From: Bolinopsis microptera
Lineage: Eukaryota; Ctenophora; Tentaculata; Lobata; Bolinopsidae
DNA length: 64,000 bases
Assembly (NCBI RefSeq): GCF_026151205.1
Contig: NC_087077.1
Location: forward strand, 17,592,475 to 17,656,474
Reading direction: 5' to 3'
Position 1 is the stretch's first letter. Each line of letters opens with the position of its first letter. Made by a program: the position numbers and the translations under genes. Positions 16,385 through 39,780 of this stretch are shown one piece after another. The notes under the pieces were generated by a model. That model was not told the origin of the DNA, ran no database searches, and worked only from the letters and a program-made list of their open reading frames with translations.

Positions 16385-16650
16385 TTATTAAATACAGAAT
16401 AAATGTTTATTAATCCACGAATCAACGTTCGCGGATCGCGCTTTCTCACAAATCAACGCTCTCTTACTGATCAGGATCTTATTTTAGTGCTTAGTCTTAT
16501 GCAAATTTATTTTCGATACAGCATCAAACATGGAATAATTGCTATTGATCAAATATATTATTTTGCTGGTTTCTTAAAAATAATATCTTCAAGAACGGTA
16601 CGCGAGCGTTGATTTCGTGGTATTTATTCGGTATTTAATAAACTATCTTA
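16385..16650. mobile_element. Inverted-repeat element upstream of GPCR copy B
   Basis: TATTAAATACAGAATAAAT with CCACGAATCAACGTTCGCG at 16385-16435 is mirrored by CGCGAGCGTTGATT and TATTTATTCGGTATTTAATA at 16600-16645, giving a MITE-like element of about 265 bp. The equivalent at 23058-23485 is longer by an insertion at about 23224-23389. Confidence 0.6.
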
Positions 16651-16740
16651 GATATAGGGCAGTCAAGTTTTCTTCTTCTTTCTTTCAACGTTGGACAGCA
16701 CTCGTGCAATACCGAATTTTTTGGCAGTCCCTCGAAAATT

Positions 16741-19108
16741 AGTGCCAAGACAAGAACGAGCCATTTAATAATAGGTATATTAATTCAAGTTTTTAATCCT
16801 TGACCTCGTCCTCGGGCTCCAATGACCCACGAGAACCCTTGTCTAAAGAAAAGGTAATAATAACCACGGAAGTGTACAAAAGTCCCACCTCTTTACTCTT
16901 CGCTACGTGCAGATTTTACGAGAGGAACGTGCAGAGATGATGTTGACTATTTCCTTCATCGGAATGTCAATGACACCTCATTGACATACAATAGACCATT
17001 TTATAACAACATAATGAAGAATAGGGACACATTACTTCGATCACCTGAAGACATTCATGCTTGCCCCATGTCGATACACAAATATCCAGTATTGGACACA
17101 ACAAATTGGACTTGTTTGATTCCTGTATAGTACGTCTGTGATGGTTCTCTGATTGCTTAACTGACGAGTGTGGTTGCGGAGGGGAGACTACCGAGCAGTC
17201 AGTAACCCCAGACTCCGATTTTTCTACTGTGCTCAACAGCCTGGATGTGTCTCATTTCCACAGGTAACGAAAAACATAAGAAAATATTTTTCTTTATGAA
17301 TACAACAGTGCGAATGATCACAGATTATTAACTCCCCACTTGTTTATCGCACGTTTCTAATAATAATAAACATATCCCTGTTTGATTATGAATATGACTG
17401 CACCTCCCACTTCAGATTTGCGATAACATAGAAGACTGTTTAGACGGTAAGTGACGAGAGTTTCTGTTCAACCAACGATCAGATAGAACAGAATATTTTA
17501 AAAAGGGACAATCCAGTTGCGCAATGCATAAACAATTACAGTCTTTCTGAAAATAACATATGGTTATACCAGCTGAGCAGTTAATAATGTTCTGTGAAAA
17601 TAATTGCAGCAGTTATTTTTCAAAATCAGATCAATGGTAATAAGTTTTGCAAGCTCCTAGGCTTTAACCATATTTCACTTCCTGCACTATATTTTTGTCA
17701 TTATATGCCTAGCCTGGAATCAATTTGTGACAATAAAATAGACTGTACAAATGGTGAAGATGAAGTTGGATGTCCGGGCAGATTCTACTGCTAAACCACC
17801 CACCCTTGAAACTGTGTCTACAAGCGAAAGGACATTGTGGGTTTCTCCGGATAAGAAATGCGATCATGTTAAAGATTGCCCAAATAATATGGATGAGTGT
17901 AATATTGACTGTGACCTAGGCAACATAGCTTCTCCAAAATCCCTCATAAAATCGAATGCTCTCTCGTGTTCACATCTCATCTTTGATTAGCTGTTTTGAT
18001 TCTGAATGTAAGGAACGGTTATATAGCAATGAAACACACAGCCACTAATGTTATGGCGAAAACTGATAGACTTCTTTTGCATACAAATATTTGCATATGA
18101 CTTTTGATGGAGTTTATCTTTGCTTCATCGTGCTGGCATCCCTCGTTCTCCGATATACTGAAGGCTATTGTGTACACTCTGACTGGTGGAGGTCGAGCGT
18201 TTTTACTGCGATATTTTGGGGGTGATCTTCTCTTTTGCAAGTCACGGATCTCTCTTGATAGTTTCTTTGATGAGTATTGTAAGGAGCATCCAGTGCACTG
18301 TATCATTTATCAGGATTCCTTATAAAGCCATCATTTTTAAGTTCCTGCATCATTTTCACCCTCAACTTGATTCATGCAATACTTCCAGTTGTAAGCTCCC
18401 CCCTAATTGAACACATCTTCAAATCGAAAATCTTCATGGTGAACATTGCCGAAAATCCCTTATTGAGCTCCTTTGATGAACAGAACATAACAGATCTGCA
18501 TAACAAATTCTTCCAAACCGGACTACTGAGTACATTACAACGATGCTGGATGATTTGAAGCAATAAACAAATATGCCTGAGATCTTCGACTTCAGAATGA
18601 TTGGGTATTACGGGGACCACGCCAATTTGCATAAGCAATATATTCAAGGATCAGGAATCTTACCGAGCTTTAAAATTGGATATTGTACTGCCATATCTGT
18701 GCTGTTAGCTGTAGTTTCAGTATCATATATTTTAATAGTGGTGAAGCATACAAGTCAGCAGCATTGCAAACGACAACCAGGGAGATAATCAGCAAAACAA
18801 CGACCTCCTTATCAAGGGTCTGCTTGATGATCGGATCTCAACTGGTAAGCTGGGTGTCCCTAATAATAACCGCTTAACTATTTCATCGGCACTGACGAAA
18901 GTTCTGTACCAGAATATGTATTTGAAGTTTTCGCCCTGTTTGTGATGCCCATCAACAGTTTGCTTAACCCAATATTTTACAGTGATATGTATAAAATTGT
19001 CAAGCAGAAATATATATTATTAGTGCTATTGTTAATAGAATTAACAAAAGAGTTAATCCATCTGACCAAACAGCAGAGTATGAAATGAACAATATCAATC
19101 GGCCATGA
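16741..19108 (+). pseudogene. GRL101-like LDLa-module GPCR, copy B, decayed
   Basis: Collinear with copy C from its first exon, but the ATG is lost (GTGCCAAGACAAG against GTGCAATGACAAG in C). Exon 1 has a nonsense change near 17129 (TAT to TAG after the NWTCLIP motif) and several one-base indels; exon 2 begins near 17417 after an AG acceptor and accumulates more than ten frameshifts through the LDLa and helix regions. The hAT target site is empty here (17612-17619). Sequence similarity to A, C and D remains very high despite the frameshifts. Either recent pseudogenisation or poor base calling would explain that; the substitutions at ATG and TAG favour real decay. Confidence 0.85.
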
Positions 19109-19360
19109 ATTTAACAGACTGACGAATATCTCATAACATTAACATATTAATGAATAATATGGGTCAGAAGTATTGACACAAATATAGGTAAAAGCATTTA
19201 CCGCTATGACCGTAAAATGTAATTTATTTTCTATCAACATTTACCTTGATTAACATCAGTAATCGTGTGCTATCCATGCAGCTGATATTATACACTGTGG
19301 AGCCTTTTATCTGCTCAAGAGGGTTTATGTATGCCAAGGATACGCACATTGCAGTAAATT

Positions 19361-20222
19361 TTAAAAAATAGAATAAAGAAAAAGAGAAAACAAATTTGAC
19401 AATGTATTCAGTTTTGGGATATGATTAAGCTGCTGTATGTTAGTTTTTATGTTCGTTTTGTTTGTCAGCTGTTTTATTAATTGTGTGTTATTCAATATTC
19501 ATGTTGCTAATACTTTTATACTATTCAGCTGTTAAATTTTCGCTCTTTTTTTGTTGTTTAAGAATAAAATTTAACAAAAAATCAGAATAAATAAAATGAG
19601 AAAAAAATTGTCGTTGACAACGTATTCAGTTTTGGGATGAGATGAAGCTGCTGTATATTAGTTTTTATGTTCCGTTTTGTTAGTCAGTTTTTTATTAATT
19701 GCGTGAATATACGTTGTTCAATATTTATGTTGCTAATATTTATTAACTTGGGGATCCCAGGCTATTATATTTATGTTCATAATCCGAATGGAAATTTGGC
19801 GGAATGACAGGCTGAGCTCTTTTTATTTTGTATTTGCTGGAGAGTTATATAAAATTAAACAAAAAATCAGAAAAAAAAATTGACAACGTACTCAGTTTTT
19901 GGATATGATTATGATAAAGCTGCTGTATATTAATTATATTATTATTAGTTTTTATGTTCCGTTTTGTTAGTCAGTTGTTTTATCAATTGTGTGTTATTCA
20001 ATATTTATGTTGCCAATATTTGATATCTATATACTATTCAGCTGTTAAGTTTTTGCTCTTTTTATTTGTTTAAGAGTAAAATTTTACAAATAATCAGAAT
20101 AAAGAAAAAGAGAAAAACAAATTTGACAACGTATTCAGTTTTGGGATGAGATAAAGCTGCTGTATATTAGTTTTTATGTTCCGTTTTATTAGTCAGTTGC
20201 TTTATTATTTTTGTGTTATTCA
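19361..20222. repeat. 212 bp AT-rich tandem array behind GPCR copy B
   Basis: Same unit and position relative to the receptor stop as at 7576-8895, with about four copies and a 3'-truncated 95 bp repeat at 19745-19817. Confidence 0.8.
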
Positions 20223-20239
20223 ATTCAGACAACCTTATA

Positions 20240-20350
20240 ACGTAAATGTGGCACTGTGGCACTTGTGGCACTAACATGTGGCACTTGCGGCACTCACATG
20301 TGGCACTTGCGGCACTATCATATGTAGCATGTGGCACTGATAGTGCCGCA
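20240..20350. repeat. GTGGCACTTGCGGCACT minisatellite
   Basis: Repeats of ACATGTGGCACTTGCGGCACT with one inverted piece (CACTGATAGTGCCGCAAGT). It replaces the expected downstream part of the gag/pol element on the minus strand and includes the last codons and stop of the gag frame. Confidence 0.75.
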
Positions 20351-21208
20351 AGTACGATTTTCAGCCGGCTTGTAGTAAGTTCGGTTATCATTGAAATTTC
20401 TTCCAGCATAACTACTGTCTGCTCTTTCCCCTCTTTGTGCATTGTTAAATGACTTGTTGCGACGCTCATTTTGAAATTTGAAACAGTTCTGTTTAATGTG
20501 ACCTGCTTTGTTACAGTAGTGACAAACTTTCTTAGTCTTTCTTGGTGCTATGCAATTAACAGCCCAGTGGCCATATTTTCCGCAGTTAAAACAATTTCCA
20601 CTAACTTTATTAGAGTTATCAATTTTAGGAGCTTCTGCTTTTAAAATTTCAATTCCGTGTCCGCCAGACGCTTGTTTCCTGGCTTCTAAATTCTTCTCTA
20701 AATCTATAGCGCCCCGATATAAGGTTGCAAAGTCGGGTGTTTTACTATTCATTAAATGAATTGCAATTGAGTTGTTTAGTAGGCTGTACACAAAAATATT
20801 TCGTATATTTGCCTCACGAGCTGCAGATTCAGCTTCGTTGTACGCTTTGCTAGCCATCCTCTGTAATTTTCGGCCAAATTGTTCACAAGTTTCGGAGGGT
20901 AATTGCTTCATTGCAAATAGTTTTGCTCGTGTTTGCTGTCTACTGTCTGGTTCTAGAATATTTCGCAGCCTTTTTTTAAATTCAGTCCAGTTGTTTTTCT
21001 GGTCCGAATTAAGTTTAATAGCGCTCAGTTTCTCATTACTTTCTGTATCGAGATAAGTGAAAAGGAGCCTCCCACGATCCGCTTCCGGAATATTTAAAAT
21101 TCGGGCAAAATTAGACCAAATTTCCAAATATGCATTAAAGTCCTCGCCGTACTTAACAAGAATTGCGCCCGTTGTTTCGTTTTGGCGGACGCTAGATTTC
21201 CATTTCAC
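20318..21208 (-). pseudogene. LTR retrotransposon gag with two CCHC zinc knuckles
   Basis: An open frame of about 296 codons encodes a retrotransposon Gag, the structural protein that packages element RNA. The N-terminal two thirds is helical capsid-like sequence (EIWSNFARILNIPEADRGRL, FKKRLRNILEPDSRQQTRAK). Near residues 209-245 it has two zinc knuckles, CFNCGKYGHWAVNC and CHYCNKAGHIKQNC, then a basic Asn/Arg tail. The frame has no ATG at its start: it opens at a GTG after an upstream stop. A candidate gag start, MATFTEEQVNVIKQETE, lies upstream at 21850-21852 in a separate frame, so the 5' part is broken or carries an insertion. No protease, RT or integrase follows; the element is cut at the minisatellite. 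Confidence 0.85.
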
Positions 21209-21852
21209 ATTTTCTATAATAATTTAAGTATAAGCTCCAATCAGCTCACTTCAATCTTCATAATAATAATATTGATAAATTATGCATCAAATACGGGAAA
21301 CACTCGAAATTCAGTTTAATTGCCGTAGAACTTAACTTGTATCTGTAATTCAAGAAATTGTCAGCAAAGGTAAACTATACTCGTGTACACGTCAATACAC
21401 TACGCGTGCCACGTACAAATTGGGCGTATTACCTAATAGTAATATTTGATATTATACATTACATGCATCATATACATTAAAACACAGTCGCGCCGCGCAT
21501 TCATAGATCACAGGCTATCTTGTATCTATACATCACATCTCCGCAAGCAATCCTCGCGCGCGCGCAACTTTTTCGTTGCATGGTAACGGACGGAATGACA
21601 TCATATTCAGACCCGCCTATCGCGATCTCCAAAATCCACGTTTTTCTGCAAAAACCTCCATTCGTAACCTTTCACTATTGCCTTTTTTCAAAAGGGTGAA
21701 AAGGAAAAAATTTGAGGTTTCCTGCTTGCATGCGAGGTACTGTTGTCCCTCCGGAAAACTACTTTACTTAAATCACTTAACAAATTTTCTTTAGCTTCCA
21801 CTTCTGTTTCTTGTTTAATTACATTAACTTGCTCTTCTGTAAAAGTTGCCAT

Positions 21853-22124
21853 TCTTAATTTTAAACGCCAAACTTGATATAAACAATACCTCAAATATCA
21901 GTGCGGTAGCAGGTTTCTATGTTTGGGCTCTTCCACTTGTCGTACTCTGCGTCGGCGGGCTCAGTCAGCAGTTTGTGTTCGTTGGGCGGGCTCTTTGTTG
22001 GGCGGGCTCTTCGTTTCTCGTCTTCAGTCTCTGTAGCTGTAGGTTGGGCGGGCTCCAGTCTCTGTAGCTGTAGGTTGGGCGGGCTCCAGTCTCTGATGGT
22101 TTAGAGAATGTGCGTGGGCTCTTT
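21853..22124 (-). other. Retroelement leader with GGGCGGGCTC repeats
   Basis: Untranslated leader between the primer-binding site and the first gag ATG on the minus strand. It contains two direct copies of CTGTAGCTGTAGGTTGGGCG-type sequence and several TTGGGCGGGCTC motifs (22000-22090, plus-strand reading). Confidence 0.5.
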
Positions 22125-22137
22125 ATCCTCGTCGCCA
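22125..22137 (-). promoter_or_regulatory. Primer-binding site, tRNA-Ser type
   Basis: The minus strand reads TGGCGACGAGGAT directly after the putative LTR end. This is complementary to the 3' end of a typical animal serine tRNA (...ATCCTCGTCGCCA), which would prime minus-strand DNA synthesis. Its place and orientation agree with the gag frame downstream. Confidence 0.75.
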
Positions 22138-22138
22138 A

Positions 22139-22323
22139 TGTTAACGGGGTTCTTCTCTTGTTTTGTTTTGGGGAACAACGGAAACAACAGTTTAGGAGAA
22201 GTGGTTTAAAATAAACTAACTTTTACGACACGAAACATCTGTATTTATATTACCTGCCGTGCAGGTGCTAACTAGTATTTTGACGTCAAACTAATGTTAG
22301 TGCACGAGCTGACCGGGGTTACA
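22139..22323 (-). repeat. Putative 5' LTR of the gag element
   Basis: Begins TGTTAACGGGG and ends GGGGTTACA on the plus strand, giving the TG...CA termini with imperfect inverted ends (TGTTAACGGGG against TGTAACCCCGG) usual for LTRs; it is one base from the primer site. About 185 bp. An AT-rich TATTTATATT stretch could hold the promoter. No second LTR was found in the window, so the outer boundary is an inference from terminal bases alone. Confidence 0.55.
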
Positions 22324-22609
22324 ATAGTTTAATGAGGCTTAGTCCACCTGCTATGGTCATGTGACCTAGGTCACATGACTTACAACCAATGGACGGCTAC
22401 CTCGCCTAGTTGTCGACCAATGGTAAAATTCCAGTATATTTTGTAACTATCTCTTTTTCTTTAAAGTACTTTATTTAAAGTCAGAGCGGTCACTTAAATG
22501 CATGCTTGAATGAACCGACCCTAATGGTCCTAGACAGGTCACGATCAAACCACCTGTGTCCTGTTCCATATTATCTTAATCATAATTATGCAATTCTATT
22601 ACCTAACAT

Positions 22610-23055
22610 ACGGACGAGACATTTCCAACCTTGTTACTAATATTATGAGTCTTCTCACCCTGGTCCCCTTTACTGTAATCACCGTGATTAACATAGTCCC
22701 GTGGGCCTATGTGGGTACGTATTTTAAGTCACATACGGACACTTCATTCAGACCACCATGACAGCCCTGGTATGGTCACAACCGCGGCGGTTACAGGTCT
22801 CTTCTGGGTGATGTGGAGTCCTACTGTGGTACGGTTGCACCTCTCTGCTATAAAAGGGGAAGACTCGATACCGGTATGGCTGGAAAAAATGCGGTATCTC
22901 TACATGTTGCCCGGTTGGGAGCGTACTTAAACCCGCTTATCTATACCTTGACATTTTTTCATCGCCTCAATCAATTAACAATTCTTTAAAAATCTATGAT
23001 GCGATGCCCGAGGCTGCAGCAGTAGCCGCAACAGAAACTGCAGACACCACGATAA
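22610..23055. repeat. Repeat block shared with 15797-16380
   Basis: Second copy of the block upstream of the receptor units, about 90% similar by eye, lacking the 150 bp present near 16165-16330. Confidence 0.65.
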
Positions 23056-23057
23056 AA

Positions 23058-23485
23058 ATTTAATAAATACAGAATAAATGTTTATTAATCCACGAATCAA
23101 CGCTCGCGGATCACGCTTTCTCACAAATCAACGCTCTCTTACTGATCAGGATCTTATTCTTAGTGCTTAGTTTTACAAATTTATTTTTTGATACAGCATC
23201 AAACATGGAATAATTGCTATTGCAATGAAAGCCAAGCTTAGCATAAGAATATATGTATTTCAATAATGCATAATGGCAGGCAAAATGCAGCGATTTCATT
23301 GGACGAGAGCAACTGTTGGCGATGTTTGACTACAAATGGCAGCGTTTGATCGAAAACCTGGTTTCAGCCCCCCCCCCCCCCCTGTGATTGATCAAATTTA
23401 TATTATTTTGCTGAGTGGTTTTGAAAAAAAAATATCTTCAAGAACGCGAGCGTTGATTCGTGTATTTATTCGGTATTTAATAAAC
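23058..23485. mobile_element. Inverted-repeat element upstream of GPCR copy C, with insertion
   Basis: Same element as 16385-16650. Relative to that copy, about 165 bp is inserted between TGCTATTG (23217-23224) and ATTGATCAAAT (about 23386), flanked by ATTG on both sides and containing a 17-base C run at 23356-23372. Confidence 0.6.
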
Positions 23486-23589
23486 TATCTTAGATATAGG
23501 GCAGTCGAGTTTTCTTCCTTTTTCTTTCAACGTTGGACAGCTGCACTCGTGCATACCGAATTTTTTGGCAGTCCTTGAAAAATAGTGCA

Positions 23590-25080
23590 ATGACAAGAAG
23601 GAGCCATTTAATAATAGGAATATTAATTCAAGTTTTCATCCTTGACCTCGTCCTCGGCTCCAATGACCCACGAGAACCCTTGTCTAAAGAAAAGGTAATA
23701 ATAACCACGGAAGTGTACAAAATTCCACCTCTTTACTCGACGCTACGTGCAGATTTTCGGAGAGGAACGTGCAGATATGATGTTGACTATTTCCTTCATG
23801 AAAATGTCAACGACACCTCATTGACATACAATAGACCATTTTATAACAACATAATGAAGAATAGGGACACATTACTTCGATCACCTGAAGACATTCATGC
23901 TTGTCCCATGTCGATACACATATATCCAGTATTGGACACAACAAATTGGACTTGTTTGATTCCTGTATATTACGTCTGTGATGGTTTCTCTGATTGCTTA
24001 ACTGACGAGTGTGATTGCGGAGGGGAGACTACCGAGCAGTCAGTAACCCAGACTCCGGTCTTCTACTGTGCTCAACAGCCTGGATGTGTCTCATTTCCAC
24101 AGGTAACGAAAACATAAGAAAATATTTTTCTTTATGAATGCAACAGTGCGAATGATGACAGATTATTAACTCCCCACTTGTTTATCGCACGTTTCTAATA
24201 ATAATAAACATATCCCTGTTTGTTTTATGAATATGACTGCATCTCCCACCTCAGATTTGCGATAACATAGAAGACTGTTTAGACGGTAGTGACGAGAGTT
24301 TCTGTTCAAACAACGATCAGATAGAACAGAATAGTTTAAAAAGGGACAATCCAGTTGCACAATGCATAAACAATTACAGTCTTTCTGAAAATAACATATG
24401 GCTTTACCAGCATGAGCAGCTAATAATGTTCTGTGAAAATAATTGCAGCAGTTATTTTTCAAAATCAGATCAATGGTATAAGTTTTGCAAGCTCCTAGGC
24501 TTTAACCATATTTCACTTCCTGCACTATATTTTTGTCATTATAAGCCTAGCCTGGAATCAATTTGTGACAATAAAATAGACTGTACAAATGGTGAAGATG
24601 AAGTTGGATGTCCGGGCAGATTCTACTGCTATAACCACCTTGAAAATGTGTCTACAAGCGAAAGGACATTGTGGGTTTCACCGGATAAGAAATGCGATCA
24701 AGTTAAAGATTGCCCAAATAATATGGATGAGTGTAATATTGACTGTGACCTAGGCAACATAGCTTCTCCAAAATCCCTCATAAAATCGAATGCTCTCTCG
24801 TGTTCAAATCTCATCTTTGGATTAGCTGTTTTGATTCTGAATGTAAGGAACGGTTATAAAGCAATGAAACGCACAGCCACTAATGTTATTGCGAAAACTG
24901 ATAGACTTCTTTGCATACAAATATTTGCATATGACTTTATGATGGGAATTTATCTTTGCTTCATCGTGCTGGCATCCCTCGTTCTCCGATATACTGGAGG
25001 CTATTGTGTACGCTCTGACTGGTGGAGGTCGAGCGTTTACTGCGATATTTTGGGGGTGATCTTCTCTTTTGCAAGTCACG
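23590..25080 (+). CDS. GRL101-like LDLa-module GPCR, copy C, 5' two exons (3' end lost)
   Basis: Exon 1 (23590-24102) starts at ATG with a signal peptide (residues 1-22, IIGILIQVFILDLVLG) and encodes an extracellular region with N-glycosylation sites (NDTS, NWTC) and an LDLa module (CPMSIH...CDGFSDCLTDEC), ending FPQ at a GTAACG donor. Intron 24103-24254 ends CCTCAG. Exon 2 continues in frame with ICDNIEDCLDGSDESFC, completing the second LDLa module; then CDNKIDCTNGEDEVGC and KKCDQVKDCPNNMDEC give third and fourth modules. Helix 1 (LIFGLAVLILNV), helix 2 (YDFMMGIYLCFIVLASLVL) and the start of helix 3 (DILGVIFSFASH) follow. After 25080 the similarity collapses into the blended region, so helices 3-7 are unreadable. 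Exon 1 here is the best guide to the intact gene. Confidence 0.85.
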
Positions 25081-28000
25081 AAGTTCTTTGAGAGTTTTGT
25101 AGGAGCATCGTGCAGCATCCATGCACTGATTACAGATTCTTAAAGCCTCATTTTAATTCTGCATCATTTTCACCCTCAACTTGTTCATGAATACTTCCAG
25201 TTAACCCCCTAATTGAAATCATCTTCCAGTTCGTAAACTTCATAGTGAACATTTCAAAATCCATAATTCTCTTGATGAACAGACCAACAATCCCTTCTGA
25301 CAAATTCTTTCCAAACCGAACTGATCATAAACAGTGCTGATTCAAAGCGAATAACAATTCCTGAGATCTTGACTTCAGAATGATGAATAACAATGGCCGA
25401 GATCCGATTGCATAAGAGTATTAGGGACGCAATTCATTACCTTTTAAAAATTAAGTATCGAATCTGTCGAGCTTGTTTAGATTGATATATATTTAATATG
25501 TGTGTAAGCATAAGTCAGCACAATTGTAAGACAACATGGAGATAATCAGCACAACAACGACCTCCTTATCAAGGTGCTTGATCATCGAAAACTCAACTGA
25601 CCTTCCTATAATCGCTTAACTATTCAGTCCACTGGTAACTGAAGTTCCGTAAATAACGTATTATTATCGGCCTTGCGTTCTGTCCAATATCATTTAGCTT
25701 AACCCATTTTGTGATGCATAACAAGTTTGTAACCAAAAGTTCATATTTTGTAGTATATTGTTAATAGAATTAAAAATAGTTTAATCCTATGACAAACAGA
25801 GTATAAAGAAGAATCCATCTGACCATAATTCAAAATGACGAATATCTCAACGGCCAACATATTATATGAATGATAGGTGAGAATATACTCAAATAGGTTA
25901 AATATTTAGCATATGGGTAAAGTAATTTAATTTCTAAACATTTACCGCTATAACTCAGTAATCGTGTACATCAACAAAATACACTTGTTTCTTTATCTGT
26001 AGCTTGAATCAAGATCGACATTGCATGACTCTGAAAAAATAATAACGAGAAAGATTAAATTCAACAGGGTATTCAAGGATAGAATATTAAGCTAATTTAT
26101 CAAAAATATATAAGTACGATTGATATCAGCTGTTTTATTAATTGTGTTATTGCAATATTAATGCTAATATTTTATTATTAGTCCGTTTTTTTCGCTCTTT
26201 TTTTTGTTGTTTATAATATTCATTATATATATACTAAGTGTTAAATTTTTGCTCATTTTTTTGCTTAAATAAATTACAAAAATCAGAATAGAAAGAAAAA
26301 AAATGGCAAGTATTATTTTGGTATGATTAAGTGCTGATATTTGTTTTATTTCCTTTTGTTAGTCAGTTTTTGAATTAATTGTGTTTATTCAATATTCTGT
26401 GCTAATTAATGAATTTCAGCTGTAAATTTGTTCTTATTAGTTTGTAGATAAAGTTAAATCCGTTTTTAAGAAAATAAAAATTGAATGTATTTTTGATTAT
26501 TAAGCTGCTATATTTTTTATGTTCGTTTTGTTAGTCATTGTTTAATTAGTATGTGTATCAATATATGCGCTATATTTATATATATTCAGCTGTTAATTTT
26601 GTTTTATTTGCTTTAGATAAAATTGAAAAAAAATAAAGAAGAATACAAATTGGCAATTATTCATTTATATTAAGCTGTGTATATTTGTTTTGTTCATTTT
26701 GTTATCAAATTTTTATATTTTTGTTATCAAATTTCATGTTCTTAGAGTAAATGACACTATGTAGATGCTTTAATTTTATTTGCTGGTAAGCTCTTTTATT
26801 TGTAAATTAAAAGAATAAACAGAAAAAAAAATTCATACACTATTATTTTGAATATCAGAATAATATGAATAGAAGAAAAAAAATTGGCACGTATTCAGTT
26901 TTGCCTTTGTATGATTTAATGCTAATTATATTTATGTTCGTTTTGTTGTAGTTGTTTAATTATGTGTATAATATGCTGCTATTTTATATACTATTCAGCT
27001 GTTGAATTTTTGTCTTTTTTTATTTGCTTAAGTAAATTTACAAAAACGAATAATGAAAGAAAAATTTACAAATTATTTTGGATATATAATCTGTATATTA
27101 TTTTATGTTCGTTTTGTATCACTTTACTAGCAGTTGTTTTTTAATTGTGTGTTTTCAATATTATATGCTAATTAATACTATCGCTTAAATTTTGCTCTTT
27201 ATAGTATTTCTTGATAAATTTAAAAAATCAGATAAGAAAGGAAAAATTGATTACAACGCATTCAGTAATGGTATGTAATCAAAGCGTTATATTGTTTTAT
27301 TATTTTATTTCATGTTTATCATGTATTTTATGTCAATATTCATTTGTAATGTTTAACTAAACTTTAAATTTTGCTAAGAAACAATAAAAAAAATTTAAAT
27401 AAATAATTGGAAAAAGCTGCTGTATTATTTTTTGGTTCGATTAATTAGTCGTTATTTAGTTTTTTGTTTTCATTTGTCAAACTTATTAACTTAATTGGGA
27501 CTGTGCATTGTGCATATATGTGGCACATTGCGCAACATGGGCCCCAGCTATTCATATGTACATGTCGATGATAATTTGCCGGAATGACGGCTTGCGCGCC
27601 GCCTAGTAAATTTTAATCATTGAATGGTTATTATAACTTTTTGCTCTTTCTTTCCCTCATTTGTGCATGTTAAATGAAATTTGAACGCATCAATTCTGAA
27701 ATTTTGAAACAGTTTGTTAATAGCTTTTTAGTATGATAAAACTTTCTGTAGTATTTTCTTGATGTATAGATTTATGCCCTTTTGGTCAGTTTTTTCAGTT
27801 AAAACAATTTTCATTCAATTATTTAGTTATCAATTTTAGGGGCTTCTCTTTAAATTTCAATTCTTCCCAGTATTGTTTCCTGTTTTAATTTTTATAAATT
27901 TACTATAACTCCGATATAAAGTGCAAAGGAAATATTTGACTACATTAAGAATTGCAATTGATTGTTTAATTAAAGGCTGTTACATATTTTCGTATTTTCC

Positions 28001-31000
28001 TTCAGTTCAGTTGTTTTATTTTGCTTTTCTAGCACCTTGAAAATATCATGCGTGCGACATTGTTCCAGTTTCGGGTAATTTCCAAAAAGCAAATATTTTT
28101 GAATAGCGTATGCTAATTGTACTGGTATCTAGAATATTTCGCAGCCTTTTTAAATTCAGTCCATTTTTTCCGAATTAAGTTTAATAGCTCAGTTCTCATA
28201 TTTGTAAAGGAAAGTCAAACGGTCCCACTTTATTCCCTCCTGATTGATTTAAAATTTTGAAAATTAAGCCAGGATAATTATAATTCAAAAGTCAATGTAA
28301 CTTCAACATAAATTAGGAGCTTATAGTTTCGAAATTGTACCTTAGAATCATTTCCATGTTGCATATTTGTAATGAGAATGGCCTTTATCTCATTCAATCT
28401 TCATATAAATATTGAAAATTGGATCAAAACGAGCACTTGAAATATTTAATTGCGTAGCTTAACTTGATCTGTAATAAAATCCGTCAAGCGGGTAACTATA
28501 CTCGGAATAATAATGACTGAAACTATCAAAGATTACCTAATAGTTAAATAATAATTTAACTCTGTGAATGCATCTTACATTTAAAAAAGTTGACCGGCGC
28601 AATCATAGATCACAGCTAAAGAAATCGAATCATATTCCAGTTAATCCACAATTTCTGATGCTTTTTAATTGCATGTAACGGACGAATAATATATTCTACC
28701 CTCCTACGCGATCTACAAATATCCAATTTCTAAAAACCTCCATTTCGTACTTTCACTATCCTTTTAAAAGGCCCAAACGAAAAATTTGAGGTTTCTTGGT
28801 GCATACCAAATATTTACCATCAGTAAAACTACTTACGTTAAATATAACAAATTTTTGTTCGCCAATTCCAAGTTCTTGTTATTCATAACTTTTTCGACAA
28901 AAGTTGCCATTTAATTTAAACCAAACTTGATATAAACATGACCTCAATAAAATAAATGAGTAACGCATTTTTTGTTTAAACTTACAACATTCAAGACGTT
29001 TGTGCATCGTCAAAGTTGACCTTGGGTCCTTGTTGGGGCCTTCGATTCTCGAACATTTCGTTTTAGTTTAAGGTCAGTCTTTATACTAGCCTTTTGAAAA
29101 GGCTCCAGTCTTGATGGTTTAACAATGCGTGGGCACTTATCCCGTCGAACAATGTTAACGTAATTTATGCTTGTTTCGGAACACGGAAATAAGTTGGATA
29201 TGGTTAGGAATAAACTATTGTTTTGACATAATTATGATACATGCCGGCAGGTGCAATTTTTTTTAACGTTAGCGACACATGAGACGGCTAAGGGGTGACA
29301 ATTTTTATACATTAGGTAGCCACTTCAGGAAGTTAAACCTAGGTAATGACTTACAACCATGGAGGCTCCGCCTATTGTCGACCAAAGGCAAAAATACCAG
29401 ATATCGACTTTTTTTTTTAAAGTACTTTATTTAAAGTAAGTCACAAAATCATTTTAAGTTAACGACCCTAATGTCCTAACTGTCACTCAAACGATGCTTG
29501 TATGTTCATAATACTAACTTAACTATCAATTTTATACCTAAACGGTCTGATCATTGCCTAGCGCTGATACAATGATAGTAGTCCTTCACCTGGCCAACTT
29601 GCTGAGCACACCGTGAATAACACAGCCCGTGGCTATGGGGACTTTTAGTCCCCATACGGACACTTCATCAAATCGCACCATGACAGGCCTTGAAGTCAAA
29701 ACGCGTTCTGTTCCAGTCAATCTTGTGTTGCTCAATACAAACTGTGATTCGGCACCTCTCAGAAAAAATTGGTGTAACCTCAACCAGGTATACTGAAAAA
29801 ATGCGGTATCCTACATGTACCACGTAGAAGTACTTAAACCCCTTAATCTATAACTGACCAATTTTCATCGCCAACAATTAACATTCTTTAAAACTCAATA
29901 TATTCCTGAGGCTGGCAGCATGCCGCAACAGAAACTGCCACCAATAAAAAGTTATAAATCGTGAAAAGATGTCCATTCACGAATCAGGAAGAATGATCGG
30001 ACGTTCTCACAATCTACCTCTCTTCTTATCGTATTTTACCCTTGACATAGTTTTACAAATTCAATTTTTGATCGAGCTCAAACTGCCGAGGTAATCGCTA
30101 TTGCATGAAACCAAATGTTACCTGATCGATATAATGTATATTGCCCACTGGCCCAAACCTAAGAGCAACTGTTGGGGAGGTTGAGACCTATCGGCCAGCG
30201 TGATGAAAATAAATTTTTTATCATTAAGAGACCCGGCCCCCCAATGTATTTCAAATTAATAATATTGGTGAATTTGAAAAAAACATCTTCAAGAACGCAC
30301 GTAAGGCAGATCTTTTCCGAATTTAGTTACCTAAACTTTAGTATTAGTGCATGGACGTTTCTCCTTTTCTGTCACGTTGGACAGCTGAATTTCTGCTGCT
30401 CCTTCTTTTGGCAGTGACCTTGCCCCAAACCAGTGAATAACAAAAAGAGCCATTTAATAATGGTTTATTCAGTTCATTCACTCCTTGCTCAATTGCTACT
30501 TAGAAAACTAGAGAACCCTTGCTAAGAAAGTAATAATACTACTAAGAATGTCAAATTCTACTTGATTTTGCAGACGTAGTTTCAGGAAACGTGCAGAATG
30601 TGTACTATTCCTTATTGGATGACATCTTTTAATGACATTAAGACATTATATTATACAATAATAAGATAGACACTTACTTGATACCTAGTAAGTCACCTGC
30701 AATTTTTGATTCACCATACCCACGGACACAACAATAGACTTATCATCTGTATAAGTAAGTCATGTGAGGGTTCCTATTGCTTCTGACAAGTATTGCGGAG
30801 GAGTCTACGAGCGTCAGAGCCAAGTTCTGTTTAGGCCAACCCGGAGTTGCGCATTACAGTTACAAAAAAATATTTCTAATAATGAAAACATGCAATGTAA
30901 GATATTAACACCCCAACTTGTTGATCCATTGTCTAATAATAAACAACTCCCTAAATTTCGAAACGTGGAGCGCACTCCACCCAGATTTGCGAACAAGAAG

Positions 31001-31470
31001 ACTGTTAAGGAGGATGCAGTTCTGTTCAGACATTATCAATAAACCAAAAGTTAAAGACATCAGTGACAATGCATAATCAATTACTGTTTCTAAATAACAT
31101 ATGCTTTACCAGCTGAGCACTAATAAAGTTCTGTAAATTTCAGCAGTTATTTTTCTCAATCTGGTAAGTTGCAGCTCTTTACCTATTTCACTTCCTGCAC
31201 TATATTTTTGTCATTATAAGCCTAGGCCTGGAATCAAGTTGTGACAATAAAAATAGACTGTACAAATGGTGAAGATGGAAGTTGGGATGTCCGGGCAGAT
31301 TCTACTTGCTATAACCACCTTGAAAATGTGTCCTACAAGCGAAAGGACATTGTGGGTTTCAACCGGATAAGAAATGCGATCAATTAAAGATTGCCCAAAT
31401 AATATGGATGAGTGTAATATTGACTGTGACCTAGCAACATAGCTTCTCCAAAAGCCCTCATAAAATCGGA
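25081..31470. other. Blended sequence, probable false consensus of two tracks
   Basis: Throughout this stretch, fragments of two different sequences alternate every few bases. One track follows copy B/C order (18245 to about 24530: receptor 3' half, 212 bp array, gag, LTR junction, next receptor exon 1). The other follows the D unit (31762 to about 38800: receptor 3' half, longer array, foldback, duplicated stretch, Harbinger remnant, sequence past 38345). Frames are broken everywhere. Genes should not be annotated here. The left edge is sharp after TTTGCAAGTCACG at 25080; indels fade out by about 31470. Confidence 0.8.
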
Positions 31471-32627
31471 ATGCTCTCTCGTGTTCAAATCTCATCTTTG
31501 GATTAGCTGTTTTGATTCTGAATGTAAGGAACGGTTATAAAGCAATGAAACACACAGCCACTAATGTTATTGCGAAAACTGATAGACTTCTTTGCATACA
31601 AATATTTGCATATGACTTTATGATGGGAATTTATCTTTGCTTCATCGTGCTGGCATCCCTCGTTCTCCGATATACTGGAGGCTATTGTGTACGCTCTGAC
31701 TGGTGGAGGTCGAGCGTTTACTGCGATATTTTGGGGGTGATCTTCTCTTTTGCAAGTCACGGATCTCTCTTGATAGTTTCTTTGATGAGTATTGTAAGGA
31801 GCATCCAGTGCACTGTATCATTTATCAGGATTCCTTATAAAGCCATAATTTTAAGTTCCTGCATCATTTTCACCGTCAACTTGATTCATGCAATACTTCC
31901 AGTTGTAAAGCTTCCCCTAATTGAACACATCTTCAAATCGAAAATCTTCATGGTGAACATTGCCGAAAATCCCTTGTTGAGCTCCTTTGATGAACAGAAC
32001 ATAACAGATCTGCATAACAAATTCTTTCCAAACCGGACTACTGAGTACATTACAACGATGCTGGATGATTTGAAGCAAATAACAAATATGCCTGAGATCT
32101 TCGACTTCAGAATGATTGGGTATTACGGGACCACGCCAATTTGCATAAGCAATATATTCAAGGATCAGGAATCTTACCGAGCTTTTAAAATTGGATATTG
32201 TACTGCCATATCTGTGCTGTTAGCTGTAGTTTCAGTATCATATATTTTAATAGTGGTGAAGCATAACAAGTCAGCAGCAATTGCAAACGACAACCAGGGA
32301 GATCATCAGCAAAACAACGACCTCCTTATCAAGGTCTGCTTGATGATCGGATCTCAACTGGTAAGCTGGGTGTCCCTAATAATAACCGCTAACTATTTCA
32401 TCGGCACTGACGGAAGTTCTGTACCAGAATATATATTTGAAGTTTTCGCCCTGTTTGTGATGCCCATCAACAGTTTGCTTAACCCAATATTTTACAGTGA
32501 TATGTATAAAATTGTCAAGCAGAAAGGTTCATATATTATTAGTGCTATTGTTAATAGAATTAACAAAAGAGTTAATCCATCTGACCAAACAGCAGAGTAT
32601 GAAATGAACAATATCAATCGGCCATGA
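31170..32627 (+). CDS. GRL101-like LDLa-module GPCR, copy D, intact seven-helix half
   Basis: From about 31475 the frame is clean to a TGA at 32625-32627 (about 370 codons). It carries all seven helices: TM1 LILNVRNG region, TM2 MMGIYLCFIVLASLVL, TM3 ending MSIVRS (the DRY position), TM4 IILSSCIIFTVNLIHAIL, a long second extracellular loop with CISNIF, TM5 ISVLLAVVSVSYILIVVKH, TM6 VCLMIGSQLVSWVSLIITA and TM7 with NPIFYSDMYKIV (NPxxY type). The tail ends in EMNNINRP. The LDLa part (31200-31470) is recognisable (CTNGEDE, DCPNN) but broken by about eight one-base indels belonging to the blended region, so the real protein may be complete. A surface receptor signalling through G proteins is inferred from the family; ligand unknown. 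Confidence 0.85.
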
Positions 32628-32904
32628 ATTTAACAGACTGAGGAAAGCTGACGAATATCTCATAACATTAACATATTATATGAATAATATGGGTCAGAAG
32701 TATTGACACAAATATAGGTAAAAGCATTTACCGCTATGACCGTAAAATGTAAAATAAACAAAATGTCGCTTGTTTTTCTATCAACATTTACCTTGAATAA
32801 CATCAGTAATCGTGTGCTATTCATGCTGCTGATATTATACACTGTGGAGCCTTTTATATGCTCAAGAGGGTTTATGCCAAGGATAAGCACATTGCAGTAA
32901 ATTT

Positions 32905-35122
32905 AACAAAAAAAAATAGAATAAAGAAAAAGAGAAAACAAATTTGACAACGTAGTCAGTTTTGGGATATGATTAAGCTGCTGTATATTAGTTTTTATGT
33001 TCCGTTTTGTTAGTCAGCTGTTTTATTAATTGTGTGTTATTCAATATTCATGTTGCTAATATTTATATACCTATTCAGCTGTTAAATTTTTGCTCATTTT
33101 ATTTGCTTCAGAATATAATTTAACAAAAAATCAGAATAAAGAAAAAGAAAAAAAAATTGGCAACGTATTCAGTTTTGGGATATGATTAAGCTGCTGTATA
33201 TTTGTTTTATGTTCCGTTTTGTTAGTCAGTTGTTTAATTAATTGTGTGTTATTCAATATTCATGCTGCTAATATTTATATACTTATTCAGCTGTTGAATT
33301 TTTGTTCTTTTTATTTGCTTAAGAGTAAAAGTTCACAAAAAAACAGAATAAAGAAAAAAAAAAAAATTGGCAACGTATTCAGTTTTGGGATATGATTAAG
33401 CTGCTGTATATTTGTTTTATGTTCCGTTTTGTTAGTCAGTTGTTTAATTAGTATGTGTTATTCAATATTCATGCTGCTTATATTTATATACTATTCAGCT
33501 GTTAAATTTTTGCTCATTTTATTTGCTTCTAAATAAAATTGAACAAAAAAATCAGAATAAAGAAAGAAAAAAAAAATTGGCAAATTATTCAGTTTTGGGA
33601 TATGATAAAGCTGCTGTATATTTGTTTTGTGTTCCTTTTTGTTAGTCAAATGTTTTATTAATTGTGTGTTATTCAATATTCATGTTGCTAATACGTATAC
33701 ACTATTCAGCTGTTAAATTTTTGCTCATTTTATTTGCTTCAGAATAAAATTTAACAAAAAATCAGAATAAAGAAAGAGAAAAAAAATTGGCAACGTATTC
33801 AGTTTTGCCTTTGGGATATGATAAAACTGCTGTATATTAGTTTTATGTTCCGTTTTGTTAGTCAGTTGTTTAATTAATTGTGTGTTATTCAATATTCATG
33901 CTGCTAATATTTATATACTATTCAGCTGTTGAATTTTTGTTCTTTTTTATTTGCTTAAGAGTAAAATTTAACAAAAAACAGAATAAAGAAAAAGAGAAAA
34001 AAATTTACAACATATTCAGTTTTGGGATATGATAAAACTGCTGTATATTAGTTTTTATGTTCCGTTTTGTTAATCACTATTACTAGTCAGTTGTTTTATT
34101 AATTGTGTGTTATTCAATATTCATGATGCTAATGTTTATATACTATTCAGCTGTTAAATTTTGCTCTTTAGAATAAGATATTTGCTTAAGAATAAAATTT
34201 AACAAAAATCAGAATAAAGAAAAGGAGAAAATTGACATTGACAACGCATTCAGTAATGGGATATGATAAATCATAAAGCTGCTGTATATTAGTTTTTATG
34301 TTCTGTTTTTTATTCAGTTGTTTATCAATTGTATTTTATTCAATATTCATGTTGCTAATGTTTATTTACTATTCAACTGTTAAATTTTTGCTTAAGAATA
34401 CAATTTAATAAAAAATCAGAATAAATAAAATGAGAAAAAAATTGTTGTTGACAACGTATTCAGTTTTGGGATGAGATAAAGCTGCTGTATATTAGTTTTT
34501 ATATTCCGTTTTGTTAGTCATTTTTTAAATTAATTGCATGAATATACGTTGTTCAATATTTATGTTGCTAATATTTATTAACCTGGGGACCCCAGGCTAT
34601 TATATTTATGTTCATAATCCGAATGGAAATTTGGCGGAATGACAGGCTGAGCGCCGCTGCCCAGTAAATATTTAAATACTATTCAACTGGTTATGTTAAC
34701 TTTTTGCTCTTTTTATTTTGTATTTGCTGGAGAGTTATATAAAATTGAACAAAAAATCAGAAAATATTTTTACAACGTACTCAGTTCTTGAATAAGATTA
34801 TGATTATGATAAAACTGCTGTATAATTATATTATTATAAGTTTTTATGTTCCGTTTTGTTAGTCAGTTGTTTTATCAATTATGTGTTATTCAATATTTAT
34901 GTTGCCAATATTTGATATCTATATACTATTCAGCTGTTAAGTTTTTGCTCTTTTTATTTGTTTAAGAGTAAAATTTTACAAATAATCAGAATAAAGAAAA
35001 AGAGAAAACAAATTTGACAACGTATTCAGTTTTGGGATATTATGTTAAAATTAAAGCTGTTGTATATTAGTTTTTATGTTCCGTTTTGTTAGTTAGTTGT
35101 TTTATTATTTTTGTGTGATTCA
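32905..35122. repeat. 212 bp AT-rich tandem array behind GPCR copy D
   Basis: About ten copies of the unit described at 7576, with CAGAATAAAG landmarks near 33131, 33345, 33555, 33766, 33977, 34211, 34427 and further. The 95 bp repeat sits in the same register as in the A unit (34573-34667). Confidence 0.88.
34573..34667 (+). repeat. Short interspersed repeat (CCTGGGGACCCCAGG family)
   Basis: Orthologous within the duplication to the copy at 8585-8670, including AATCCGAATGGAAATTTGGC. It was therefore present before the A/D duplication. Confidence 0.75.
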
Positions 35123-35125
35123 ATT

Positions 35126-35395
35126 TGACCAAAACCCATAATCATGGGTAGAGTGGACCGTTGGCGTTTCCAGTGTCTCTCTTTTCCACAAAAAAGGAAA
35201 TGATATTAATTTGAATAATCGTCCGCAAATGCAAATTGATACTGATAATCATGAAATCTGTCGCTCGCTTTTCCCATTCTGCATTCCACATTCATTCACG
35301 GCTTACAAATTGTAATACAGCTTATTGAATTTGGAAAAGAGAGACACTGGCAACGGTCCACTTTATATCTACCCATGATTATGGGTTTTTGGCAA
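35126..35395. mobile_element. Foldback MITE (CCCATAATCATGGG ends)
   Basis: D-unit counterpart of 8897-9170, with inverted ends at 35129-35150 and 35370-35392. Confidence 0.75.
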
Positions 35396-38345
35396 ATCTC
35401 TTTTTTATTATAAATATAATGTCAGGATAATTATAATTCACAAAGTCGAAATGTAAACTCATCACTTCATTAATATTAATATTAATAAGGAGGTAAAAGA
35501 TTTCGAAATTTTACCTTTAGAAACATTTCCTTGTGTAGGCATATCTGTTGATAACTGACTGAATATGGCACTTTTTACTCATTCAATGCTTTTCATGATT
35601 GCACGGCTTTGGAATAGATAATGAGCACTTTGGAAGTGACTTTATGAGCGTTCTGCGTTATTCAGCGTTGCAGTTGTAATAATCCGATCCTAAAAGCGGG
35701 TCTCATCACTGATACTGTCGAATTAAAAATGACTGAAAAATTATCATGTGACAATTACCTCAGCATGAGTGATGAGGAAGTAACCAAGATGTTTTTAACT
35801 CTCGGGTGTTTGTCAAGCTCCATAAAAAAGTGTTTGAATAAACGTAGGCAATAGCCATTACATAACTACAAGAAATTCGAATCAATGATGTACAGTTTTA
35901 ATTTCAATTATATTTCTGATGTTTTTAATAATTTATAATCAAAGCACAAAGCTTATATTAGTTTCTTTCTCGATGTCGACTACAAATTGATGTCCAGAAA
36001 TGTATTAAAAGCATGCCTTATCTGTTAACAACTCCAGCATAATATATTAGCCCCAAACCGAGTAACTTTAGACGTTTGGGGAAAACATACCAAATATCTT
36101 ACAATCAGTATTCAGTATCACTAAGGGGAAAAATACAGGTTTTTGTTCGCCAGAATGTCCAAGCTTCGTTTCTGTGGTTTCAGAAACATTTTTACGACAA
36201 AAAATAGCAATATTATAACTACTTTTTTGTAACTTTGAGGTCCAATAAATATAAATAAAAATGAATAAACGCATTTTTGATGTCATTAAAAACTACACAA
36301 GAATTCAAGAGAACGATTTTATGTCAAGCAGTCAAGCATCAAAAACAACCCTATGTTCCCTGACTGACGTTTGATCAAAATGAGCCTGAAAAGGACAATT
36401 TCAGCTTTTTTGACTTTAAAAGGTCTAGGTTATTTAATACACCAGCCTTTTGAAATAGGGTAATGAAATCTTACACCCATGTAGAACAGTACAGAAACAG
36501 AGTTTTTGAAAAATAGTAGCTTGCTATCTCAATGATTAGCTAAATTATAGATGTGGATACTGGCAGGGAGGTGATAATTGTTTGTTTACATTAATAGTGA
36601 GCACATGTTCAGGAGGCTGAGGCGGTGATAATTTTTTGTTTAAATTTTAGGGCGAGCACATGTTCAGGAGGCTGATGAGGTGATAATTTCTTGTTTACAT
36701 TTTAGGGCGAGCACATGTTCAGGAAGCTTAAGAGACGCTTGTAACGCCTTCTTGTTACCCCCTTGTGAGGGCCCCGAATTATTTTCTGAACGAAAGCTCA
36801 AAAATAACCGAGAAATCGACCTTTTTATTAACTCATTTTGATGACCGTTTCTAACCTAAAATTGCACGAAAAATCGATTTAGCTAGGTTTCAGAACCTAT
36901 GAACACTTCCTTATCCCTCAAAATCGATGTTTTATAGTTTAGAATGCGAGCAACTTAAGCAACATATATTTTAATCCTTCGGTTCTGCATCTCTTGACCT
37001 AGGGCTGAAACCGAAAGATCGAGGCAATCCTCACCTTGACTGATCGAACTTGAGCGAAGAGCAGAGTACGACAAAACACAGGTAAGCAACTCATTTTGGT
37101 GACTGTTCCTCACCTGTACAACGTTTCACGATAAATCGATTTGAGTTGGTTTTACAGCTCAATAACGCTTCCTTGTTCCTCAAAATTCTTGTGTTGCTCA
37201 AACAAAAAAACATGTTGATTCTGCAACCAAAGAACAAGGTGATTGTCTTGTTAACAACTCGAACAGGTTCTATCACAATTTTCAAAGCAGAGCACGATAC
37301 TACGATAGCAAAGTCAAAAGAAACACAATAAAGGTAAGGACCAACACCATGATAGAACAATCGTACTTTCAACTCAATTATATTTATTCTGAACGTACGG
37401 GCAGCCATGCGCTCCGTGATCCCGACCAATTGTAATAAAAGTGTCCTGTCGCGTGACGATGATCCGTCCAATCACGAACAGGAAGAGTGATCAGACGGAT
37501 ATTATATCGTATGTTTACTTTCCTTATCTGTATTTTACCCTCTGTTGACATTGTTATCTCTACTACAGCTTGGCAATTTCAAGGTGCTCCTATCTGCACC
37601 GAGGTACACACGCCATGATTACGTCATGCAGAACTAGAAATTGTGTGATCCGTGATCGTTATAATGTAACTGTGCCCACTGCCCATAAACAATGCAAACT
37701 GTTGGGGTAGGGGGGTGTAGGAGCCTTATCGTCCAGTCATGAACAGAATATTAACATAATTTTTTAGTTATTTAAGTAGACCTGGTCATTTTTTTAAAAT
37801 CACTTTCCAACTCCCTTAAAAAACAGGGTTCAAATTGACAAGTTGGGCACACCCGAATGCGATGTCGCTCAGATAAGGCAACATCTTCGCCACAAATTTG
37901 TTTCCCAAAATCTTGTACCGCTTCAGATAGCCAATGGAGCGTTCCACGTGGATGCGGGGCCGGGAGATGCTGAATTTTCTGCAGGCTGCTACTTCTTTCG
38001 GCATGAACTGAGTCTTGCCCCACATCCCCGCTGGGATTCTTAAATTAACTAACCGGAAGATGTTTTGAGCATTCTGGTTTAGTCAGTCATGTCGCTCTTT
38101 TCAATTATATTTACTTAGAAAATTAGTGGAATTTGATAAATCTTAAATGAGGGATCTTTTACGTATAACATATGATGTCAGAATTCTAGGTTGGATTTTT
38201 GCAGACGTAATATGTGTCATGTGAACGGTCCCTTATTGTGATGACATTGTCTTTTAATGTTAGTGTTAAGAAGTTATATTATAGATGTTATAAATGATGA
38301 ATTGGTTATATTGTATTCCTAGTATAGATCCCAGAGTAATTTTTT
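35396..38345. other. Duplicate of 9171-13005 without the LINE
   Basis: Collinear with the A unit. It carries the empty LINE target site (35537-35547), a three-copy repeat of about 60 bp (36568-36730) and the second Harbinger remnant. Apart from that remnant no coding sequence is supported. Confidence 0.75.
37816..38025 (-). pseudogene. Harbinger-type (DDE_4) transposase fragment, second copy
   Basis: Counterpart of 12452-12700: RIHVERSIGYLKRYKIL and MLPYLSDIAF are kept, and the final part is shifted into another frame by a one-base change near 37820. A six-base insertion precedes the RIHVER motif compared with the first copy. Decayed remnant. Confidence 0.78.
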
Positions 38346-39780
38346 ATTTGCCCCAGGAAACCCTACCGGCTCATGACTACTAAACTAAATGCAGCGTGTG
38401 AAAGGTAAACTCGATGTGACGCGCGACGCCATACGTGCTGTTGAAAATCTATCACCTCTAGCAAGCCCAGCAGGCGGTAAGGTTTTCTGGGTTAGGCCCA
38501 CCGCTTACGAGTTCGCGGCTGAATCGTGGCTTTCGCCCCGATATACTGTCACTAAAAGTAAATTAAATTAAATGACAATGAGGGTCAGTGGTCACAATCG
38601 CCGTGGTACAAGTTGACCATTGTTAATGATCTGGCCCGGCGCGCGCTAACATTTCGAGAAGAAAGCGGCGCGCGCTACTTCGAAGAAATTTAGACGAGCG
38701 ACATCCGTCACGTCAAGCTGTACAAGGCATGCAGCTACTGCACATGCAGCCACATTTACCACAAAAGGCCGGTTAGCACGATAAACGTATACAACGTGTA
38801 TGGACGTATAGTATGGTTATGTAGCAACGCCCGCCTTAACGTGTGATACTCGTAAAATATTTGTTCCAATTCCAATTCTCCGTCGACGCGACGAGTCCAA
38901 CTTGCGCGTCCTGGTAAGTTGTAAACCTACAACGCCTGCCGCGAAATTAAAGCGGCAATAGCAAAGGAAACAACCACATGGTTTTATGGATTGCTGGCAC
39001 ATCGGAAAATTTGCACAAAGTTAGATTTATTAATCATGAGCCACACAAGACAGTTTTAAAATATGAAATATAGCAATTATAGTTGTTCCTTGGGTTCACA
39101 TAGCCATGTGTCTACGCGTACTGCGTGACGTGCTTGTTTCGGTCGTGCGCTACTGCAAGCGAGAGGGCTCTGGTTAGAGCAATTCCTTGGGCAAATTTAA
39201 GCATTTTTTGTGCGTATTTTATTTTTGTTACTTCTATCCCTTTACAAAATTTCATAAATAAAACTACTTTTAATTATTCAATATTGAGTATCATATAAAT
39301 GTAGTTAGTATGAACAATTTAATTATGGCAAACATTTTTAGAATGCGACTGAAAATTTAGGCGCGCCGCGCATATTTTCGCAGATTCACACTGTAGTATG
39401 TAGTATGAAAATCGAGCGCTGACTCGAACACTGCACTATCATATTTTCACAAAATATCTAGCGACGAGTTGTTATTTGTTATTACTTTATTTCATGTGGG
39501 GATTGGTACTTACCGCAAGCAATGCGATATATTATATTAAAGCGTCCGGAAGGACCTTCTATAGGTGTACACTGTTACACACCACGTCACGTTTTCCAGA
39601 TCAACCATTGATATATTGGTACTTCTAATGTGCCCAATAACGGCCCAGCATCTTGAACTGCATGACATCTCCTTCAACCTCATCCCCCAGAAGACGAGCT
39701 TTGAGGTCTCCTAGATTTGTTTATGTAAATTTTGATATTTTACTGTACTATTTTATGTTGTATATAATTTTACGGACGAA
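38346..39780. other. No firm gene; possible LINE tail at its end
   Basis: Unique sequence beyond the duplication, with GC-rich patches near 38630-38700. At 39650-39714 one frame reads HLELHDISFNLIPQKTSFEV before a stop and an AT-rich tail, reminiscent of a LINE protein end, but too short to be sure. Confidence 0.35.

What the first reader, a model, noticed from the sequence alone, without database searches (positions are those of the whole stretch)
25081..31470. Six kilobases that read as a base-level blend of two unrelated sequences
Fragments from two collinear tracks alternate. Example: GAGCAACTGTTGG at 30163 is found at 23306 (B/C track), while ATAATGTA..TGCCCACTG just left of it (30131-30150) is found at 37661 (D track). 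At 27640-27700 there are remains of the gag region (20420-20500), at 29102-29160 a ghost of the retroelement leader/LTR junction (22085-22145), and at 30590-30640 words from 38205-38270. Recombination cannot interleave two non-homologous sequences every few bases along 6 kb; a consensus of mis-stacked reads from two receptor units can. The left edge is sharp and lies inside near-identical receptor sequence, where a mis-join would start.
Basis: partly seen in the sequence, partly recalled or inferred. Interest (0 to 1): 0.85.

Follow-up and report, generated by a model that had tools for sequence, protein, structure and literature searches.

The report
Assembly blend of two neighbouring sequences
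Six kilobases of this genome assembly are not real DNA but an averaged mixture of two neighbouring stretches, almost certainly made when the assembly software stacked sequencing reads from two look-alike gene copies on top of each other.

Summary
The stretch 25081-31186 (X) is a base-level blend of two sequences that lie intact beside it: 18245-24500 (B/C track) and about 31722-38921 (D track). Beyond receptor and array the tracks are unrelated, yet all 3361 bases of 27700-31060 are explained by one or both (2108 both, 713 B only, 540 D only, 0 neither). Replacing D by 30 shuffled copies leaves 25-51 bases unexplained and lowers the score from 4930 to at most 4208. In the receptor part, two receptor copies stacked 30-50 bases out of register account for the damage. 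Old divergence is excluded: X carries a nested insertion that, of five retroelement copies scored, only the B copy has; the four others are 97-100% identical to B, X only 68-72%. A single raw read is excluded by the D component. Best explanation: a misassembled consensus that interrupts an otherwise open receptor frame and adds a false fourth unit. Not a biological feature. No reads were available; the producing step is inferred and could not be reproduced.

The parts
25081..31186 (.). X: base-level blend of the B/C track and the D track; no independent sequence detected
31187..31469 (.). possibly damaged zone: C-type receptor start with 17 small differences to C in 288 columns (11 insertions, 4 deletions, 2 mismatches; counted from 31186)
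18245..24500 (+). track 1 (B/C): B receptor 3' part, array, LTR-retroelement remnant with nested element, C upstream DNA and C receptor start
31722..38921 (+). track 2 (D): receptor (entering X 30-50 bases out of register), long array, downstream DNA; beyond 38351 the genome search listed no other copy except one 87-base match
24786..25080 (+). last clean receptor sequence left of X; 291 of 292 aligned columns identical to its counterpart right of X
31470..31761 (+). first clean receptor sequence right of X, the counterpart of 24786-25080
21160..21705 (.). nested high-copy element of about 546 bases in the retroelement remnant, absent from the 4 other retroelement copies scored
28389..28784 (.). 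ghost of that nested element inside X (67-79% matches to its genome copies), which ties X to the B copy

Best explanation
X is an assembly artefact. Two populations of reads (or corrected sequences), one leaving a receptor copy by the B/C route and one by the D route, were stacked because the receptor and its array are near-identical. They were aligned by force, 30-50 bases out of register in the receptor and with no homology at all after the array, and a consensus was called over the pile. Letters on which the two agree in the forced alignment were kept, mismatched columns were mostly settled for one or the other, and most one-sided columns were dropped, which gives the blend and the excess of deletions. 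The blend was then joined to the D receptor, so the B-end/retroelement/C-start segment is passed through twice. The real locus most likely has one receptor unit made of the left half before 25081 and the right half after 31761. Shown here: the two-source composition, a register slip, the sharp left edge, the open frame across the join. Inferred: that reads were stacked, which program did it, that the slipped receptor copy is D's, and the true unit number.
For: X 27700-31060: 2108 bases shared by both tracks, 713 B only, 540 D only, 0 of 3361 unexplained. With 30 shuffled D partners the score is 4172 +- 20 (maximum 4208) against 4930, and 25-51 bases stay unexplained; with 12 real window stretches 11 score 3989-4192 and the twelfth, the A paralogue of the D track, 4537. 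Random B partners (3 of 3) and simulated noisy reads of B alone (3 of 3) also score lower, 3671-3741 and 4256-4353. D continues to the end of X: 733 against 637-661 for 12 decoys (unexplained bases 0 against 0-4 do not discriminate there). In 25085-25930 (846 bases), with B in register and D shifted by -30 to -50, unexplained bases are 1-3 and the score 1290-1297; shifts of 60 bases or more, and +40, score 1104-1170. B and X share a nested element missing in 4 sibling retroelement copies that are 97-100% identical to B. Joining 24380-25080 to 31762-33000 gives one open frame of 521 codons across the join.
Against: No reads were seen. The consensus step could not be reproduced: a MAFFT majority consensus of simulated reads gave a different mix (6 B + 5 D reads: 0.53 both, 0.32 B, 0.15 D, length ratio 1.04; 5 + 5: 0.43, 0.30, 0.27, 1.19; X: 0.63, 0.21, 0.16, 0.87), and direct global alignments of B and D share only 1-11% of their matches or 4-30% of the letter pairs inferred from X. 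In the receptor part shifts of +-20, whose band includes the in-register receptor, score higher (1334-1348 for B plus D) though they leave 35-38 bases unexplained; and B or A as the shifted copy fits about as well as D (1291 and 1290). In the array part X is largely a subsequence of D with letters missing, so the partner there is not well represented by the short assembled B array. The 521-codon frame is partly expected because all units are homologous.
Confidence: 0.95

Rival explanations
1. X is a single unpolished noisy long read of a real further copy of the B/C segment; the D matches are chance.
For: Against B alone X looks like a raw read: 830 of 3877 template bases deleted, 222 substitutions, 314 inserted bases.
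Against: The D track is present at 1160 against 502 +- 12 for 40 shuffles. Simulated noisy B reads leave 35-48 bases unexplained and score 4256-4353 against 4930 with 0 unexplained (3 of 3 simulations). Two per cent of added substitutions already leaves 8 unexplained.
Confidence: 0.02
2. X is an old, decayed duplicate of the unit, mutated beyond recognition.
For: It is collinear with B/C and D and its frames are broken.
Against: It carries the retroelement and the nested element that, of five copies scored, only B has, yet the 4 sibling retroelement copies are 97-100% identical to B while X is 68-72% like B and them. Decay cannot import letters of unrelated D downstream DNA. The change begins abruptly at 25081 next to sequence that matches D in 291 of 292 columns.
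Confidence: 0.005
3. A wet-lab or read-level chimera: one read whose consensus was called from two different molecules (for example mis-paired strands or a doubly loaded well).
For: It would also give a two-source blend with almost no third-source letters.
Against: Both sources come from the same small locus and are stacked nearly in register at a shared repeat, which a random pairing of molecules does not predict. Assembly or gap-filling explains this directly. Not tested with reads.
Confidence: 0.025

Closest known systems
Homotype or heterotype false duplication in genome assemblies (PMC9516828; abstract and passages seen)
   Same: A falsely repeated segment, sometimes on one scaffold and joined by unsupported sequence, which inflates a gene family
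   Different: In the passages seen, the extra copies come from divergent haplotypes or from read errors; here the extra segment is a letter-by-letter mixture of two different loci
Mosaic consensus from collapsed alleles (one passage seen in the HiCanu paper, PMC7545148)
   Same: One consensus sequence that represents neither source and can break reading frames
   Different: There the sources are alleles; here they are unrelated for more than 3 kb

Membership tests
False duplication (assembly error) | Duplicate holds no sequence of its own | tested here: met
   0 of 3361 bases of 27700-31060 and 1-3 of 846 of 25085-25930 unexplained by the two tracks; 5 of 1575 in the array part 26126-27700
False duplication (assembly error) | Read depth below haploid level, discordant or clipped reads at the edges, gap or unsupported join | not testable with these tools
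   no reads held
Mosaic consensus of homologous alleles | The merged sources are homologous along the whole stretch | tested here: not met
   B 20470-24450 against D 34760-38740 scores 467, below 20 shuffles of D (497 +- 15)
Genuine diverged tandem duplicate | Differences from the parent are its own mutations, not letters of another locus | tested here: not met

The most novel reading that the evidence does not exclude
A real further unit of the B/C type (receptor end, retroelement with nested element, receptor start) exists at this place in the animal or in one haplotype, and its reads were mixed with D reads, so the blend hides a true recent tandem duplication, near-identical to B, instead of creating a false one. 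A longer array in that unit than in B would also account for the D-like array part of X.
Probability: 0.12. Interest if true: 0.15.

Novelty: not a real feature. Interest (0 to 1): 0.12.

Why it matters
Anyone who counts receptor genes, retroelement copies or array lengths here would probably count one unit too many, and would read X as a diverged pseudogene or an old insertion. The signature (each letter explained by one of two neighbouring unrelated stretches, excess of deletions, abrupt start inside near-identical repeat) can be sought from an assembly alone, without reads.

Tried and rejected
A third source for the receptor part was sought by nine-base matches on the diagonals of both strands of the window. 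In one search the listed minus-strand bins reached 5-7, and the plus-strand lists (top 25 only) held receptor tracks and otherwise at most 4. In one search no listed bin outside the receptor tracks and their neighbours exceeded 5. Finer binning then showed the second receptor register at about -40, so no third source is needed. Array sequence as partner in the receptor part was rejected because X there shares no more words with the arrays than the clean receptors do, apart from 1 against 0 at 11 bases.

The consensus rule was not identified. There is no strict base preference in mismatched columns; G is in most parts the letter most often lost. No clear stepwise change of B:D weight along X that would betray consensus windows. 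Direct alignments of B and D with 12 scoring schemes shared 1-11% of their matches with the X-derived pairs; one 1884-base chunk and anchored chunks shared 4-30% of the X pairs. MAFFT simulations did not match X.

Identity of C 24786-25080 with D 31470-31761 was first taken as proof that both are one unit. It is weaker than that, because A matches C in 277 of 278 columns there too, and the receptor unit has 17 of 28 genome matches at 93% or more, the query and three others of this window included.

Paper searches were read as listings only, beyond the passages named. Those aimed at such errors (35, 46, 47) listed related ones but no base-level blend of unrelated loci; this does not show that none is in print. 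The wtdbg2 paper is not held.

Full report
What was checked. The window holds a tandem array of receptor units: A (about 4546-9325, downstream 10234-13015), B (15797-20224), C (22608-25080) and D (31470-35547, downstream 35537-38351), from self-comparison. The unit encodes a 7TM-like protein: of four frames scanned against Pfam only the D frame 31512-32627 has a match, below the cut-off, to 7tm_1 (23.5 bits, cut-off 30.5), and its only solved relative at E 0.01 or better is relaxin receptor 1 (E 1.4e-6). Between B and C lies an LTR-retroelement remnant with a gag-like frame on the minus strand (20318-21208; the gag and zinc-knuckle labels are from memory, no family search was run on it). The stretch in question, X, lies between the C receptor start and the D receptor.

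X is collinear with B/C. A global alignment of 24400-32200 with 17565-25500 shows clean sequence up to 25080, then 58-81% identity per 150 columns outside the array (lower in the array, where X is longer than B), with in the right part about 8% mismatches, 5% insertions and 17% deletions of all columns, until about 31180. X follows the receptor end, the array, the retroelement remnant, the C upstream DNA and the C receptor start in that order.

X is also collinear with D. Between 27700 and 31100 B and D have nothing in common (467 against 497 +- 15 for 20 shuffles). Still, of 25 exact matches of 10 bases or more found in a preset band between X 27300-31100 and D, 22 lie on one rising line of offsets (7007 to 7631) and 3 off it. 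The band allowed +-200 bases, so part of the trend is imposed; the scores are not affected by that. The global score of X against D is 1160; 40 shuffled D sequences give 502 +- 12 (maximum 531) and 8 other window stretches 395-495. The D track continues past 38351, where the homology of D with five other genome copies ends (apart from one 87-base match elsewhere), to about 38921 at X 31171: 733 against 637-661 for 12 decoys. So the second source is the D locus itself.

Joint explanation. A three-way dynamic-programming alignment lets each base of X come from B, D, both or neither. For 27700-31060: 2108 both, 713 B only, 540 D only, 0 neither. With 30 dinucleotide-shuffled D partners the score falls from 4930 to 4172 +- 20 (maximum 4208) and 25-51 bases stay unexplained. 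With 12 other window stretches 11 score 3989-4192; the twelfth, starting at 9700, is the A paralogue of the D track and scores 4537 with 22 unexplained, as expected. Random decoys for B score 3671-3741 (3 of 3) and simulated noisy reads of B alone 4256-4353 (3 of 3) with 35-48 unexplained. The mixture runs along all of this part, without clear steps.

The receptor part. In 25085-25930 B and D are nearly the same, so an in-register blend would be clean, but X is damaged there too. A second register at about -35 to -50 bases accounts for it: 14 nine-base matches in that bin, comparable with 10-19 for the best D-track bin in four positive-control stretches of the right part, and 9 of 12 off-register exact matches of 8 bases or more to D lying at -26 to -50. 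With B in register and D shifted by -30 to -50 the score is 1290-1297, against 1104-1170 for shifts of 60 bases or more and for +40, and unexplained bases are 1-3 of 846. Shifts of +-20 score higher (1334-1348), because their band includes the in-register receptor, but leave 35-38 unexplained. B or A as the shifted copy fits about as well (1291, 1290), so this test shows the slip but not whose copy it is; D is inferred from the right part. The two stacks were thus 30-50 bases out of register and were never re-registered, the mark of a forced or banded alignment.

The array part. In 9 of the 12 hundred-base windows of 26200-27399, 95-100 of 100 X bases match D while 14-30 D bases per window are missing; the other three windows match 87, 79 and 66. 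Unexplained bases are 5 of 1575 in 26126-27700. The assembled B array is too short to be the exact partner here. This detail is not resolved.

Why not biology. Siblings of the retroelement elsewhere in the genome (C3 twice, C6, C8) are 97-100% identical to B and lack the nested element of about 546 bases that splits the B copy. X has a ghost of that element and is only 68-72% like B and the siblings. X therefore derives from the B copy or a near-identical twin of it and cannot be old. No recombination or mutation process known to me interleaves two unrelated sequences every few bases over more than 3 kb.

What it most likely is. Reads leaving near-identical receptor copies by two routes were stacked and a consensus was called. 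Joining 24380-25080 to 31762-33000 gives one open frame of 521 codons across the seam (A: 463), so X with one copy of the 292-base repeat looks inserted into one receptor gene. This is supportive only, since the units are homologous and many near-identical copies exist. The consensus procedure itself could not be reproduced.

Which program. G000 has 264,652,675 bases in 232 contigs, and matches reach 11 Mb or further into each of 13 contigs, C1-C13. This resembles the ctenophore Bolinopsis microptera: 13 chromosome-scale scaffolds, about 254 Mbp by k-mers, assembled with wtdbg 2.4, gaps closed with TGS-GapCloser, polished with pilon (PMC10232365, passages seen). That identification is inference, not tested. 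If right, a consensus over reads binned together, or a gap filled from candidate reads (PMC7476103, passages seen), would be natural culprits. Neither was tested.

Verdict. Observation confirmed, first interpretation supported, not a real feature of the genome. It is worth a flag in the annotation and little more.

Noticed in passing
24500-25081 and genome copies: The receptor unit is dispersed and multi-copy: 17 of 28 genome matches, the query and three others of this window included, are 93% or more identical over at least 538 of 582 bases, on C3, C4, C6, C11 and C12. It looks like a recently expanded, relaxin-receptor-like 7TM family.
   Followed up: partly
21160-21705: A nested high-copy element of about 546 bases inside the retroelement remnant: 35 of the 44 listed genome matches are copies of it at 91-95% (a lower bound; 40 of 852 candidates scored). 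Four sibling retroelement copies lack it, with an overlap of about 5 bases at one empty site that looks like a target-site duplication.
   Followed up: partly
17560-19400: The B receptor frame is broken (longest open frame 91 codons against 463 in A), although B is about 95% identical to C at its start: a pseudogene or residual small indel errors.
   Followed up: no
52397-54536 and 56285-58151: A tandem repeat array with a spacing of 184 bases and an inverted copy of it at about 92%.
   Followed up: no
46377-47438 and 48154-49200: A 98% identical inverted duplication of about 1.06 kb, with about 0.7 kb between the arms.
   Followed up: no
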